Of a stretch of 55,103 nucleotides of DNA, positions 6,594 to 41,611 are shown in pieces. How positions within the stretch are numbered: the first letter of the stretch is position 1; every line of letters begins with the position of its first letter. The notes below the pieces were generated by a model, which saw only the letters and a list, made by a program, of their open reading frames with translations, had not been told where the DNA came from and did no database searches. The stretch lies in contig MFPJ01000043.1 of the NCBI GenBank assembly GCA_001782675.1, positions 1 to 55,103 on the forward strand, in the 5' to 3' direction. This DNA comes from Candidatus Levybacteria bacterium RIFCSPLOWO2_12_FULL_39_17. GTDB lineage: Bacteria > Patescibacteriota > Microgenomatia > Levybacterales > GWA1-39-11. A program made the position numbers and the translations under genes.

Positions 6594-7169
6594 ATGCCGA
6601 TCTTGAGAAAGATTTATTCAATATTAATTGACATGGTTGAAACCTTGGTTATTGCAGGGGCAATTTTTGTAGTTATATATGCTTTTCTATTTCGGCCATT
6701 TCAGGTAAACGGACAATCAATGTATCCAAATTATGATAACGGCGAATACATATTGACAAATCTAATAAGCTTAAGACTGAAAACAATAGACAGAGGGGAT
6801 GTCGTAGTTTTTGAATCTCCCGCAAATAAAGAGAAGGATTTTATCAAAAGAGTAATTGGTATACCCGGAGATGAAGTTATGATTAAGGCAGGTTTTGTTT
6901 TTGTCAATGAAGTTAAGCTTGATGAGTCAAGGTATCTCACGTCCGGTGTCAGAACTTATGGCGGTTCATTTATGCCGGAAAGTAAAATTGAAATAGTCCC
7001 GGAAGGAAACTACTTTGTTCTCGGAGACAATAGAAACGCCAGTTCCGATTCAAGGGAATGGGGATATGTCACAAAGGATAAAATTATTGGGAAATCATTT
7101 TTGGTGTATTGGCCCTTAACGAAATTCAGACTTGTTCAACACGCAGATTATAATTTAATTAACCGTTAG
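6594..7169 (+). CDS. lepB: Signal peptidase I
   Basis: NGQSMYPNYDNGEYIL (Ser box), RGDVVVFESP, DFIKRVIGIPGDEV (Lys box), VLGDNRNASSDSREWG. Confidence 0.95.
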   Translation: MPILRKIYSILIDMVETLVIAGAIFVVIYAFLFRPFQVNGQSMYPNYDNGEYILTNLISLRLKTIDRGDVVVFESPANKEKDFIKRVIGIPGDEVMIKAGFVFVNEVKLDESRYLTSGVRTYGGSFMPESKIEIVPEGNYFVLGDNRNASSDSREWGYVTKDKIIGKSFLVYWPLTKFRLVQHADYNLINR

Positions 7170-7980
7170 TGAGTCTGAAGAAAATGTCTTCAAGCAAGGG
7201 TTTTGTTTCCGTCTCGTCCCCTTTTACCTCAATGATTATTCTCGCTTTTATCCTTGATTGGTCAACCTGAACTCTTGAATAACCCCTTGTTTCCATAATC
7301 TTTTTAGACATCTCTTCAAGTTCGGGAATATAAAGCTTATCTCGTTTTTTGTGCGGTTCTTTTTGCTGAACTTCTGATTTTAACTGTCTTGCGACTTCTT
7401 CTGCTCCACGAACAGAGATCCCCTCAACCAGAATCCTCTTAAACGCGCCCAGCATGAGTTTTGGGTCTCCAATTGAAATAAGAGGCCTTACATGACCCTC
7501 CGTAATTACGCCTGCGGCCAATGCGTCTTTAATTGCGTCGGGAAGAGTCAGGAGTCTTATTGTATTTGAAATATAGGGCAGGCTCTTCCCCACTCTTTTG
7601 GCAACCTCGGTCACCGAAATTCCGAATTCGTCAATAAGCCTTTTATAAGCCTGCGCCCTTTCTACAGGATTAAGGTCTTCTCTCTGAACGTTTTCAACTA
7701 TGGACATTTCAAGCATTCCTTGAGGGGTAGCTTCTTTAACGATTACCGGAACTTTCACAAGGCCAAGAATCCTTGCGGCTCTCCATCTTCGCTCCCCTGC
7801 AATAATTTGGTATCCGGCGGGAGTTTTGGCCACGACAATAGGCTCAAGAATTCCCTGCTCTCTAATTGAGTTGACAAGATCCGTTAATGAATCGGGAGAA
7901 ATTAATCCTCGTGGCTGCAATGGATTAGGTTGGAGCATTATTGTCTCAAGTTCCATTATTCTGTCTATTGCGTTATCCAT
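7159..7980 (-). CDS. parB: ParB/Spo0J-like partition protein
   Basis: LQPNPLQPR, ILEPIVV, AGERRWRAAR, MSIVENVQREDLNPVERAQAYKRL, HTH. Confidence 0.92.
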   Translation of the reverse strand: MDNAIDRIMELETIMLQPNPLQPRGLISPDSLTDLVNSIREQGILEPIVVAKTPAGYQIIAGERRWRAARILGLVKVPVIVKEATPQGMLEMSIVENVQREDLNPVERAQAYKRLIDEFGISVTEVAKRVGKSLPYISNTIRLLTLPDAIKDALAAGVITEGHVRPLISIGDPKLMLGAFKRILVEGISVRGAEEVARQLKSEVQQKEPHKKRDKLYIPELEEMSKKIMETRGYSRVQVDQSRIKARIIIEVKGDETETKPLLEDIFFRLTNG

Positions 7981-15521: not shown

Positions 15522-15542
15522 AAAAAAGCACCTTCCGGTGCT
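15522..15542 (-). terminator. Intrinsic terminator downstream of ftsZ
   Basis: Minus strand AGCACC-GGAA-GGTGCT-TTTTT. Confidence 0.85.
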
Positions 15543-15568
15543 CTAGTAGAAAATTGAAGTTCTAAGAC

Positions 15569-16663
15569 TTAATTCTTCTGTCTTAGAAATGCGGGGATGT
15601 CAAAAATTGACTCCTCCTCATCATCGTTTTGGGGATGGGCGCTAATAATTGTTTTTTTATCATTCACCGTTTCTTCCTGTTTCTCAACCATTTCCTGAAG
15701 TTTCTTCCTTGATTCGTCAAATCCGGTCGCAATAACTGTAATTCTTATCTGATCATGCAGGTTATGGTCAATGGTTGCTCCGAAAATTATGTTTGCGTCA
15801 GGATCTGCTGCCGACGAAATGATTTTGGATGCTTCATTGACTTCCGACATCGAAAGATCCGTTCCTCCAATTATATTAAACAAGACTCCGCGCGCCCCCT
15901 CCATGGAAACCTCAAGAAGCGGCGAAGATGTAGCTTGCCTTGCTGCAAGCTGCGCCCGGTTTTCTCCTACCCCAACTCCAATTCCCATAAGGGCTGAACC
16001 GGCATTGGTCATAATAGTTTTCACATCCGCAAAGTCAACATTAATCAATCCCGGAATAGTAATCAAATCCGAAATTCCTTGCACTCCGTGGTTTAAGACC
16101 GAATCTGCAATCCTGAATGCCTCAAGAAGAGAAAGCTTCTTGTCAATTACTTCAAGAATCCGTTGGTTTGGTATAACAATCAATGTGTCAACCTTTTCTT
16201 TTAAATCCTCAATTCCGTCCTCGGCAACAACCATCCTTCGCGTTCCCTCAAATAAGAATGGTTTTGTTACAACAGAAACAGTTAATGCCCCTACTTCTTT
16301 TGCAACCTCCGCAATTATTGAAGTAGCGCCCGTCCCTGTACCTCCACCCATTCCGGCTGTTAAGAAAATCATATCTGTTCCCTCTAGCATTTCCTTAATT
16401 TTTTCCCGGGATTCCTCGGCGGCTTTTCTGCCTATCTCAGGGTTTCCTCCAGACCCAAGTCCGCGCGTCAGATTTTCACCAATTTGAACTTTTACATTTG
16501 CCTGGTTGATAAGTAATGCCTGCGCGTCCGTATTGATTGCCATAAATTCAACACCCTTAATCTGACCTTCGGAAATCATAGTATCGATTGCATTTTGACC
16601 GGCTCCACCAATACCTATTACGCGAATCTTAGCAAACGAAGTTGTTTGAGGCTTAATTAACAT
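15569..16663 (-). CDS. ftsZ: Cell division protein FtsZ
   Basis: IRVIGIGGAGQNAID, GGGTGTGATSIIAEVAKE tubulin signature, NVDFADVKTIM, C-terminal IPAFLRQKN. Confidence 0.98.
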   Translation of the reverse strand: MLIKPQTTSFAKIRVIGIGGAGQNAIDTMISEGQIKGVEFMAINTDAQALLINQANVKVQIGENLTRGLGSGGNPEIGRKAAEESREKIKEMLEGTDMIFLTAGMGGGTGTGATSIIAEVAKEVGALTVSVVTKPFLFEGTRRMVVAEDGIEDLKEKVDTLIVIPNQRILEVIDKKLSLLEAFRIADSVLNHGVQGISDLITIPGLINVDFADVKTIMTNAGSALMGIGVGVGENRAQLAARQATSSPLLEVSMEGARGVLFNIIGGTDLSMSEVNEASKIISSAADPDANIIFGATIDHNLHDQIRITVIATGFDESRKKLQEMVEKQEETVNDKKTIISAHPQNDDEEESIFDIPAFLRQKN

Positions 16664-37240: not shown

Positions 37241-38224
37241 ATGGTGTTAATTGATGATGTAAGAATAAAAGTTGCGGGAGGAGACGGTGGAAATGGCTCA
37301 ATGGCCACCCTGCGCATGCCAACGGGCACCAAATCTTACCCTGATGGGGGTGACGGGGGTAATGGAGGTGACGTGTATACCGTCCCTTCCTCAAACATCT
37401 CTGACTTAAACCAATTCCGATATGTAAAAAGTGTAGTTGCTGACGACGGTGGAAAAGGCCTGGGCAAAAACCAGCATGGAAAAAACGGGGAGGATAAAAC
37501 TATACTTCTTCCGCCCGGAACAAAAATCATAGATGAGGCTACGGGTGAGGAAATAGAAATGACGGATCAGGTAGATCCGGTTTTAATCGCTTCCGGAGGC
37601 CGGGGGGGACGAGGCAGTCATGGTTTTAGACCCGGCCCCGCACATTACACCTACACAAATGAAGGCGGCCGCGGGGAAAGAAAAAATCTACACTTAATCT
37701 TAAGCCTTATTGCAGATGCCGGATTCATAGGATTCCCAAATGCCGGAAAAAGTTCGCTTCTTGCAAGGCTCACCAACGCAACACCTAAAATCGGAAACTA
37801 TCCTTTCACAACCATTGAACCAAGCCTTGGAACGATGCCCGCCCGCCGTACTGGAGGGGGTAAAGTGGTACTCGCGGATATCCCGGGCATCATTGAAGGT
37901 GCATCCTCCGGCCGCGGTCTTGGGATAACATTTTTAAAACATATTGAAAAAACAAAAGTACTGCTAAATTGCATCACCTGCGAGGATCCCAATCCCCTAA
38001 AAACTTACCAGCTTGTACACAAAGAGTTTGAAGAATTCAATGTAAAGCTTAATGAGAAAAGGGAAGTAATATTGTTGACAAAAAAAGACCTGACCACGGA
38101 AGACGAGTTAAAAGAAAAGGTAAAAATTCTCTCGGAATTTAACAGGACCATTATTCCCGTGTCAATTTATGATGATGAGAGTATTAAAAAATTAACAGAA
38201 GTAATTCTTCGGAATACTATTTAA
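37241..38224 (+). CDS. obgE: Obg family GTPase
   Basis: Glycine-rich Obg domain GGDGGNGSMATLR; GFPNAGKSSLLARLTNA; ADIPGIIEGASSGRGLGITFLKHIEK. Confidence 0.96.
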   Translation: MVLIDDVRIKVAGGDGGNGSMATLRMPTGTKSYPDGGDGGNGGDVYTVPSSNISDLNQFRYVKSVVADDGGKGLGKNQHGKNGEDKTILLPPGTKIIDEATGEEIEMTDQVDPVLIASGGRGGRGSHGFRPGPAHYTYTNEGGRGERKNLHLILSLIADAGFIGFPNAGKSSLLARLTNATPKIGNYPFTTIEPSLGTMPARRTGGGKVVLADIPGIIEGASSGRGLGITFLKHIEKTKVLLNCITCEDPNPLKTYQLVHKEFEEFNVKLNEKREVILLTKKDLTTEDELKEKVKILSEFNRTIIPVSIYDDESIKKLTEVILRNTI

Positions 38225-39025: not shown

Positions 39026-39676
39026 ATGCCAAAAAAGCCTGATGAATTATTAAAGCTTGTTGAACCATGGGGAATTCAAGAGGAAACTAAAAAAGCTTTG
39101 AAAAAATATTTAAAGTCGGGAGAATCGGCAATCGACATTGATAGCTGGATTAGAGATAGACGAACCGCAGAGCAATTCGCTGAGCAAATGAAAGCATACT
39201 GGGCAGTTGAAGATGCTTTTGCCGTTTGGCTTGAAAAGAATCTTAAAAGAAAGTACCCGGAAGTTAAAGTAACGGTCAATGGATCTGACAAGAATAGATT
39301 AATTGTTCAGGGACAGGCACCCCGAGGGAAAGTTACCGGAAATCCTGATTATTTTGTAGATTTTCAAGATGGAAATCCGAAAATTCCTGTAGAATTTCAA
39401 TTTGGAACATCTATCCTCCCGGGATATGATGTTAAAAAAAATAAAGTTAATAAAGCTGAGAAAAGCGGAGGGGTTATTTTGTTTGCCTTTTTGCCTCAAA
39501 TGAAATTTACATTACTTTCGGCCTCTTTTATAAAAGAACATGGAGCCGATTATATCAATCCAAGACTGGGCGGAAAACATACTTGGAACATAGAGGTTGG
39601 AAAACTTATTATGAGAAACAAAGATTATCAAATCAAAATGGAAGATTTAAAAGATGGTTTTAGGCAAAAAGCTTGA
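39026..39676 (+). CDS. Putative type II restriction endonuclease (PD-(D/E)xK-like)
   Basis: GNPDYFVDFQDGNPKIPVEFQFGTS (PD...ExQ) and convergent pairing with an MTase; start moved from 38999 to the ATG of MPKKPDEL. Confidence 0.65.
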   Translation: MPKKPDELLKLVEPWGIQEETKKALKKYLKSGESAIDIDSWIRDRRTAEQFAEQMKAYWAVEDAFAVWLEKNLKRKYPEVKVTVNGSDKNRLIVQGQAPRGKVTGNPDYFVDFQDGNPKIPVEFQFGTSILPGYDVKKNKVNKAEKSGGVILFAFLPQMKFTLLSASFIKEHGADYINPRLGGKHTWNIEVGKLIMRNKDYQIKMEDLKDGFRQKA

Positions 39677-40706
39677 TTTGTTGCTTTTTTAAATTCGTTA
39701 TAGCATCATCTGCAATTTCCTTACTTAATTCGTATCCGACACCATTTCTCCCTAGGTCCGCTGCTGCTTTAAGTGCCGTACCGCTTCCTAGAAATGGATC
39801 AAGAATAGTTTCCCCGATAAAAGAAAAGGCTTTTATAATTCGAAAAGGTAACTCAAACGGAAATGGCGCCACATGACTTCTGTTACCACCGCTATTTTCC
39901 GGCTTCATCACCCAAACATCAGAATTTTTTATGGATAACCAGAAATTTTTATCCATCCTTGAGCTTTCCTTTTGAGCACGAGATAGGTGGGCATATTTGT
40001 TGAAATTCTTTCTTTCGGGCTTATTAAATTCTAAAATAAATTCATGCATGTTATTTATTAGAATCCCTCCGGGATATGGATAGGTACCAAAATGTGCTCT
40101 TACCCCATTTGTTTTTTGCCAAATTATGTCTCTTTTAAAAATAAATCCTATCTGCTCCATTACATCAACTGTCCTACCCACAAGATTTAATGTCCTGAAG
40201 GTTCCATTCCCTCTAACGGGCAGGTTCATAATGTTAATAAATGCTTTTCTTCCCGGCTGGAGAACCCTAAAGACCTCTCTCCAAACTTCGGTAATTGTTT
40301 CGAACCATTCATCAAGATCATGGATATTTCCCAGATCCTCTTTAATTGGTCTCTTGGAATACATCTTTGCATTAAAATAGGGAGGTGAAGTAAGCATTAG
40401 ATGAACTGATTCATCTTCCAAGTCGCTCATCTTTATTGAGCTTTTTCTGTAAATTTTTTGTACCGTATTCCCTACTTCTAATTCCGTATAGATACTAGAT
40501 TTTTTTTGTATTGGCTTTGCTTTTTTAGGAAGACTGGTTAAGTATTTCTTTAAATCTTTCAAATTAAATCTTTTTTGGCCGCTTCCTGAAATAACTGAAT
40601 TAATTTCGCCGGATTTTGCCAAATGATGAATTGTACTTACTGTAGTGTTTAGATACATAGCAGCTTCTATTGAGGATAAATATTTTCTTTCTTTGTAATC
40701 TTCCAT
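39660..40706 (-). CDS. Site-specific DNA methyltransferase (TSPPY class, probable N4-cytosine) with N-terminal excisionase-type HTH
   Basis: YLSSIEAAMYLNTTVSTIHHLAKSG HTH; LMLTSPPYFNAK (motif IV); ILDPFLGSGTALKAAADLGRNGVGYE (motif I). Confidence 0.88.
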   Translation of the reverse strand: MEDYKERKYLSSIEAAMYLNTTVSTIHHLAKSGEINSVISGSGQKRFNLKDLKKYLTSLPKKAKPIQKKSSIYTELEVGNTVQKIYRKSSIKMSDLEDESVHLMLTSPPYFNAKMYSKRPIKEDLGNIHDLDEWFETITEVWREVFRVLQPGRKAFINIMNLPVRGNGTFRTLNLVGRTVDVMEQIGFIFKRDIIWQKTNGVRAHFGTYPYPGGILINNMHEFILEFNKPERKNFNKYAHLSRAQKESSRMDKNFWLSIKNSDVWVMKPENSGGNRSHVAPFPFELPFRIIKAFSFIGETILDPFLGSGTALKAAADLGRNGVGYELSKEIADDAITNLKKQQIKLFA

Positions 40707-40764: not shown

Positions 40765-40876
40765 GTATTACAAGAATGGTCAAACCTGTACGCCTCCTTG
40801 CTGTAAGTTTTGCTTAAATTGGCAACTTCAGGATATGCTGTTCTAATTTTGGTAGAGCATGACATAGTTTTACCTA

Positions 40877-40906
40877 TTGACAAGGCTATACAATGCAATG
40901 TATAAT
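40877..40906 (+). promoter_or_regulatory. Consensus sigma70-type promoter
   Basis: TTGACA-N18-TATAAT. Confidence 0.8.
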
Positions 40907-40912
40907 GATTTT

Positions 40913-40991
40913 TACCTTTAATACGCAAGTGTTAAGGGTAGAGAATCTAGCAATAGGTTTTCGGCAGGAAAACCCCGCAAGGGGTTTTTTT
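40913..40991 (+). ncRNA. Candidate orphan structured small RNA (~79 nt)
   Basis: Starts ~7 nt after the -10 box; 11-bp 5' hairpin with GCAA loop, internal hairpin, intrinsic terminator; no coding sequence on this strand. Confidence 0.65.
40969..40991 (+). terminator. Intrinsic terminator
   Basis: AAAACCCC-GCAA-GGGGTTTTTTT. Confidence 0.88.
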
Positions 40992-41071: not shown

Positions 41072-41611
41072 TCAACGAGTTAAAGACTTAAAAATGTTGC
41101 GGGTTTTGAGTCTGCGCTCAAGAATTTGTTCTATATATTGGTGAATATGTTCCTCGTTTCGAAATCTGTTTTTCTTATCCCAAAATCCAAGCATTGTTAA
41201 AAGTCTTATCTGAAAAAATATCATTGACTCGGGAGTTTCAGGAAGCCTCGGAATAGTATTTTTAATTAAAGCAAAAACATCGGGATGTTTTTGCCCAAAC
41301 GGCATTATTGCATCAAGCAACTCGCAGGTGAAAAAAACCTTTTCCATATTTTTTAAATCCTGCTTTAAGTTTTCAAACGAATCCAAAAGCTTTACCTCTG
41401 TTAAAATGAAATTCTTGGATGTATGAACCGATTGAAATTCGATCAGATTTAATAATTCTACGGACGAAGCTCTTTTTGAAGTAATTTTGCGGACCCCTTT
41501 TGCTACTACCTCAACTTTTCCGTTGTTTTTGGTAAATAGTGTGATGAAGCGGTGAGAATCACCAAAATTAATTCTTCTTATTACGAATCCCTGGTCTTTT
41601 AGATAGCGCAT
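41072..41611 (-). CDS. recO: DNA repair protein RecO (short)
   Basis: DQGFVIRRINFGDSHRFITLFTKNNGKVEVVAKGVRK N-terminal OB fold. Confidence 0.85.
   Translation of the reverse strand: MRYLKDQGFVIRRINFGDSHRFITLFTKNNGKVEVVAKGVRKITSKRASSVELLNLIEFQSVHTSKNFILTEVKLLDSFENLKQDLKNMEKVFFTCELLDAIMPFGQKHPDVFALIKNTIPRLPETPESMIFFQIRLLTMLGFWDKKNRFRNEEHIHQYIEQILERRLKTRNIFKSLTR

What the first reader, a model, noticed from the sequence alone, without database searches (positions are those of the whole stretch)
40877..40991. Orphan ~80-nt structured RNA with consensus promoter and mutually exclusive terminator/anti-terminator hairpins
Seen directly: TTGACA-N18-TATAAT, then from ~40914 an 11-bp hairpin ACCUUUAAUAC-GCAA-GUGUUAAGGGU (GNRA loop, two G-U pairs), a 15-nt linker, hairpin GGUUUUC-GGCAG-GAAAACC, and terminator AAAACCCC-GCAA-GGGGUUUUUUU. 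The GAAAACC arm overlaps the terminator's 5' arm, so the last two hairpins are mutually exclusive, as in attenuators and riboswitches. Flanking genes (recO and the MTase) are both on the opposite strand, so it leads no visible gene and may be an independent sRNA. I do not recognise the family.
Basis: partly seen in the sequence, partly recalled or inferred. Interest (0 to 1): 0.85.

Follow-up and report, generated by a model that had tools for sequence, protein, structure and literature searches.

The report
New small RNA family in Levybacteria
The window carries a real, previously uncatalogued small RNA gene of about 82 nucleotides, folded into three capped hairpins and read from its own strong promoter; it recurs in dozens of ultra-small groundwater bacteria, where small regulatory RNAs are almost unknown, but what it regulates has not been shown.

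Summary
The window has a perfect TTGACA-18-TATAAT promoter followed directly by an ~84-nt RNA ending in an intrinsic terminator. It is three back-to-back hairpins, each with a GCAA loop (H1 12 bp; H2 GAGAAUCUA-GCAA-UAGGUUUUC; H3 terminator), joined by a short GGC(A) linker. The proposed terminator/anti-terminator switch has about zero probability in the full-length RNA, loses pairs in relatives, and is not conserved.

Covariance models found relatives in about 28 of 82 genomes of the order (Levybacteria, CPR) and in further families of the class. In 29 aligned copies, 22 of 28 base pairs change on both sides while staying paired (0/500 shuffles reach this). The promoter, which lies outside the model, sits in register in 24/27 order copies (0.25 expected) and 11/12 class copies. 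Neighbouring genes vary and the next gene's strand is about 50:50, so this is not a leader. No Rfam family matches.

Best reading: a new, patchily distributed, trans-acting sRNA family, most likely working through its invariant junction core. Partner and function are unproven. It is a new family of a known kind.

The parts
40847..40876 (+). Upstream promoter region with ~11-bp phased TTTG/TTGA-like elements (TTTTGG, ATGACA, TTTT, CCTA)
   Evidence: Conserved upstream of the sRNA in Levybacterales copies, information peaks at -29, -18, -9 and -4..-1 relative to the -35 box; 7 of 10 genome-wide hits of the array pattern lie at the sRNA, the rest at the level of the reversed-pattern control. The window's own copy is degenerate and was not itself recovered by that pattern search.
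40877..40882 (+). -35 box TTGACA
   Evidence: in-register promoter in 24/27 order copies vs 0.25 expected
40901..40906 (+). -10 box TATAAT
   Evidence: conserved in L002/L003 and across family
40908..40991 (+). sRNA (modelled extent; 5' end inferred from promoter spacing)
   Evidence: R3 match 79.4 bits, E 9.6e-15; family covariation
40913..40940 (+). H1: 12-bp hairpin UACCUUUAAUAC-GCAA-GUGUUAAGGGUA
   Evidence: all pairs covary in family
40941..40962 (+).
   Evidence: strongest covariation in the family (helix 4)
40963..40966 (+). Conserved GGCA linker between H2 and H3
   Evidence: invariant in the four closest relatives
40966..40991 (+). H3: intrinsic terminator, 5' arm ending CCCC, GCAA loop, GGGGUUUUUUU
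   Evidence: 99.7% of cells paired

Best explanation
An independently transcribed, intrinsically terminated small RNA of about 82 nt that acts in trans. Transcription starts just after the TATAAT box; the RNA folds into three GNRA-capped hairpins stacked end to end, the last being the terminator, which leaves a compact, stable RNA with almost no free ends. The helices drift in sequence while keeping their pairing, whereas the short junction segments at the bases of H1 and H2 are invariant within a subtype (UACC / AAAAGGCAGGA / ACCCCGAAAA in the main Levybacterales form). I infer that the junction core is the working surface and that the hairpins hold it rigidly. The likeliest use is binding a protein, as a decoy or a small RNP (about 0.4); base pairing with mRNAs through the GGCA/GGCAGGA segment is next (about 0.3). 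Shown here: sequence, promoter, fold, covariation, distribution, lack of a dedicated neighbour gene. Inferred: that the RNA is made, that it acts in trans, and what it binds.
For: Fold z -7.8, and -7.3 and -6.9 in two relatives. Homologues in different gene contexts keep promoter, fold and terminator. Model R1 hits 31/82 order genomes at E<=0.01, about 28 of them at E<=1e-4. On 29 sequences 97.2% of cells pair, 22/28 pairs change on both sides, covariation 0.514 vs 0.195 shuffled, 0/500 shuffles, and slid controls collapse. The promoter, which is not part of the model, is in register in 24/27 order and 11/12 class copies vs 0.25 and 0.12 expected. The next gene downstream lies on the opposite strand in 17 of 30 copies and its identity varies. 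Within the main subtype the junction segments carry 1.95 bits/position vs 0.76 in the H2 stem.
Against: No expression data. Distribution is patchy: many near-complete order genomes lack a match even with normal filters, so it is accessory or diverges fast. Alignment A7 was fitted to the model's structure and E-values are rough. No target or protein partner was found; exact complements of the linker in the genome are at control level. Loops vary (GNRA, also UUCG and UUUU), so they are probably only caps.
Confidence: 0.72

Rival explanations
1. Cis-acting attenuator or riboswitch: an aptamer with terminator/anti-terminator switching that controls a downstream gene.
For: A transient alternative hairpin is the best fold of the 68-74-nt nascent chain; an invariant junction core in the main subtype resembles an aptamer; a same-strand gene lies downstream in 13 of 30 copies.
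Against: In the finished RNA the alternative hairpin has probability <= 0.0003 and is broken in relatives without compensation. Downstream gene strand is about 50:50 and the gene differs from genome to genome; in the window and its two closest relatives it is convergent.
Confidence: 0.06
2. Antisense-type sRNA: pairs with mRNA translation starts through a short seed (GGCA / GGCAGGA / CCCCGAAAA) and blocks or frees the ribosome site.
For: Purine-rich invariant segments lie between stable hairpins; the architecture (hairpins plus terminator) is usual for base-pairing sRNAs (own knowledge).
Against: Only 3-5 nt are truly unpaired in the window fold; the exact complement of the linker is no more frequent than control in four genomes; presence of an RNA chaperone (Hfq/ProQ) was not tested.
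Confidence: 0.3
3. Only a bidirectional transcription terminator for the recO operon, with a chance promoter-like sequence.
For: recO ends 81 nt away on the other strand and the hairpin could end both transcripts; in many relatives obgE ends about 5 nt away.
Against: H1 and H2 covary as strongly as the terminator and are not needed for termination; the promoter is kept in register far above chance; the gene next door changes while the RNA stays.
Confidence: 0.04
4. A drastically altered housekeeping RNA (SRP 4.5S RNA or 6S RNA) not recognised by Rfam.
For: Size is right, and the Rfam small-SRP and 6S models find nothing in the Microgenomatia genomes tested.
Against: Patchy distribution and occasional two or three copies; no rod-like helix with the SRP domain-IV loop and no large central 6S bubble in the fold; cmscan shows no sub-threshold similarity.
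Confidence: 0.03

Closest known systems
Trans-encoded bacterial sRNAs (general class: own promoter, hairpins, Rho-independent terminator)
   Same: Independent consensus promoter, ~80 nt, stable hairpins, intrinsic terminator, intergenic position, no fixed neighbour, patchy presence and occasional duplication
   Different: No long single-stranded seed; three helices stacked with 3-5 nt gaps; occurs in CPR bacteria; no target known
CsrB/RsmZ-type protein-sponge RNAs
   Same: Series of stable hairpins, GGA-containing junctions
   Different: GGA is not in the hairpin loops; the CsrA gene family is absent from 80 of 82 order genomes
6S RNA (RF00013) and small SRP RNA (RF00169)
   Same: Small structured RNA with own promoter
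   Different: No match by cmscan, different architecture, patchy distribution
Transcription attenuators / riboswitches with terminators
   Same: RNA ends in an intrinsic terminator; conserved junction core in one subtype
   Different: No regulated downstream gene, no conserved alternative fold

Membership tests
Any Rfam 15 family | Covariance-model score at or above gathering threshold | tested here: not met
   Window: only a tRNA; RNA region: best 15.6 vs 70 bits; main and type-3 relatives: only tRNAs
Trans-encoded sRNA | Own promoter directly in front of the RNA | tested here: met
Trans-encoded sRNA | Rho-independent terminator at 3' end | tested here: met
Trans-encoded sRNA | No fixed adjacent target gene | tested here: met
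Trans-encoded sRNA | Transcript exists and regulates targets in trans | not testable with these tools
   no expression data or culture
Riboswitch/attenuator | Conserved mutually exclusive terminator/anti-terminator folds | tested here: not met
Riboswitch/attenuator | Consistent downstream gene on the same strand | tested here: not met
   17 opposite, 13 same strand; differing genes
CsrA-sponge RNA (CsrB/RsmZ) | CsrA present in the same genomes | tested here: not met
   PF02599 in 2 of 82 order genomes, not in the window's genome
6S RNA | Match to RF00013 | tested here: not met
   0 of 82 genomes; control rings in 5 of 14
Small SRP RNA | Match to RF00169 | tested here: not met
   no match at this locus or anywhere in 12 genomes

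The most novel reading that the evidence does not exclude
The RNA is the core of a Microgenomatia-specific riboregulatory system: an RNA with a private, phased upstream control region, bound by an as yet unknown protein through its invariant junction core, working without CsrA and possibly without 6S RNA in genomes of under about 1 Mb.
Probability: 0.22. Interest if true: 0.75.

Novelty: new member of a known kind. Interest (0 to 1): 0.55.

Why it matters
Small regulatory RNAs in the Candidate Phyla Radiation are almost undescribed: keyword searches of the open literature found none for these groups. This is a well-supported structured RNA family with a ready covariance model, a mapped promoter and named hosts (Ca. 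Levybacteria), so its expression can be looked for at once in existing groundwater metatranscriptomes. The sRNA-specific phased upstream region suggests regulated transcription in cells thought to have little regulation.

Tried and rejected
Known families: Rfam at gathering and relaxed thresholds, none. CsrA sponge: CsrA absent from 80/82 genomes. 6S and SRP replacements: no evidence. Phage or virus origin: three patterns absent from IMG/VR and no phage record. Antisense target through the linker TTTTCCTGCCG: hits at control level and one is the sRNA itself. A first array pattern with wrong spacing found nothing; the corrected one did. Phylum-wide search: the two hits outside the class lack a proper H2 and were discarded; only the top 11 candidates per genome were scored there, so absence outside the class is weakly supported. 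Weak hits in G031, G032, G045, G058, G074, G052, G026 look like plain terminators. Second weak hit in the window (15522-15590, minus) is an ordinary gene-end terminator. Literature: nothing relevant.

Full report
The observation. The region is intergenic, between a minus-strand N6/N4 DNA methylase (39660-40706) and minus-strand recO (41072-41611). It contains TTGACA-18-TATAAT, 12 of 12 matches, followed at once by an RNA that folds at -36.6 kcal/mol, z = -7.8. The fold is three adjacent hairpins, each with a GCAA loop: H1 40913-40940 (12 bp), H2 40941-40962 (9 bp) and the terminator 40966-40991, with a GGC(A) gap before the terminator.

The proposed switch. That alternative hairpin is about 14 kcal/mol worse than the full structure and has pair probability at most 0.0003; it is only the best fold of the 68-74-nt nascent chain. 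In the four closest relatives H2 forms in every sequence, with a U-A to A-U double change. The alternative hairpin loses its second pair in three of four and another pair in one, with no compensation. It has no counterpart in the main Levybacterales subtype. The switch is therefore rejected as a conserved feature, though a transient fold in this one species cannot be excluded.

Relatives. BLAST in the family found two homologues, 90% and 85% identical, in different gene surroundings. A covariance model from three sequences then matched 31 of 82 genomes of the order at E <= 0.01, about 28 of them at E <= 1e-4. After refinement a class-wide search matched 52 of 385 genomes at E <= 0.001, including families outside the order. 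Outside the class the only two matches were not convincing. Named hosts of the main form are Candidatus Levybacteria/Levyibacteriota and unnamed Patescibacteria. The distribution is patchy: with normal filters only one further strong match turned up among 30 order genomes that had been negative or weak.

Evidence for a structured RNA. On 29 aligned copies 97.2% of pair cells are standard pairs, 22 of 28 pairs have changes on both sides, and the covariation score is 0.514 against 0.195 in shuffles, with 0 of 500 shuffles reaching it; sliding the partners by one column drops it to 0.12-0.14. The alignment was fitted to the model, which favours the structure, so two independent checks matter. First, class copies not used in building the model fold on their own, most of them into the same three hairpins. 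Second, the promoter, which lies outside the model, is found in register in 24 of 27 order copies and 11 of 12 class copies, against 0.25 and 0.12 expected from shuffled sequence.

Anatomy. There are at least three forms. The window form has H1, H2, then GGCA, then the terminator. The main Levybacterales form has UACC-H1-AAAAGGCAGGA-H2-ACCCCGAAAA-terminator; its junction segments are invariant in 16 sequences (1.95 bits per position) while H2 varies freely (0.76 bits). In several of these the GG of GGCA can pair either with the 5' CC or with the 3' CC, with variable predicted preference. A third form (UAGCUCUAUGGC-GCAA-...-UUCUAGCAAUAGAA-...) is nearly identical between different families. Loops are mostly GNRA but UUCG and UUUU also occur, so they look like caps rather than docking sites.

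Promoter array. Upstream of the -35 box the Levybacterales copies share elements phased at about 11 bp (TTTG near -29 and -18, TT at -9, CCTA just before TTGACA). Of ten matches to this array in 14 genomes, seven are at the sRNA; the other three equal the background of the reversed pattern. The window's copy is degenerate. This suggests a dedicated regulator or an UP-like element; which of the two is not known.

Context and mode of action. The gene downstream is on the opposite strand in 17 of 30 copies and on the same strand in 13, and its identity varies. In the main form the RNA often lies convergent with obgE, about 5 nt from it; in the window obgE (37241-38224) and a zinc-ribbon gene are still within about 3 kb, so the locus looks inherited and rearranged. 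This fits an independent trans-acting RNA and not a leader. I favour protein binding through the invariant junction core (about 0.4) over base pairing (about 0.3). A CsrA decoy is ruled out by the absence of CsrA, and the exact complement of the linker is not enriched.

Comparison with the known. No Rfam 15 family matches the window copy or the main and type-3 relatives. 6S and small SRP models do not match this RNA, nor anything else in the genomes tested. Literature searches found no described sRNA of these groups. It is therefore a new RNA family, of the known general kind 'independent, intrinsically terminated bacterial sRNA'.

Limits. No expression data; the 5' end is inferred from promoter spacing; genomes are mostly metagenome-assembled; model E-values are rough; wide searches used strict filters.

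Noticed in passing
12 Microgenomatia genomes incl. G000: Rfam small SRP RNA (RF00169) gives no match at E<=0.1 in any of 12 near-complete genomes although the control rings in 12 of 14; the SRP RNA of this class is either missing or strongly diverged.
   Followed up: no
L031 (G047) and L090/L119 (G348): The third RNA form together with ~1.6 kb downstream (113-aa DUF6266-like protein, 544-aa ORF, methyltransferase) is 87% identical between genomes of different families: lateral transfer or mis-binned contig.
   Followed up: partly
L048/L077 (G007) and L130 (G122): A shorter two-hairpin relative (H1 plus terminator, no H2) lies 38-59 nt after a cellulase-like secreted protein gene in two distant genomes; the G007 copy has its own TTGACA promoter. 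Possibly a sister sRNA family.
   Followed up: partly
L058 (G081) 7001-7081 and 7864-7949: Two differing copies of the sRNA, about 860 bp apart on the same strand, with a ~210-aa ORF between them; G060 has up to three weaker copies.
   Followed up: no
window 40847-40876 and relatives: Private ~11-bp phased TTTGA array upstream of the -35 box, largely specific to this sRNA; may be the binding site of an unknown regulator.
   Followed up: partly
G007:C30 (L118), G014:C6 (L117): Two order genomes carry a single ORF with two CsrA domains (128-132 aa), otherwise absent from the order.
   Followed up: no
window 15522-15590 (-): Weak model hit is an ordinary gene-end terminator, not a second copy.
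   Followed up: yes
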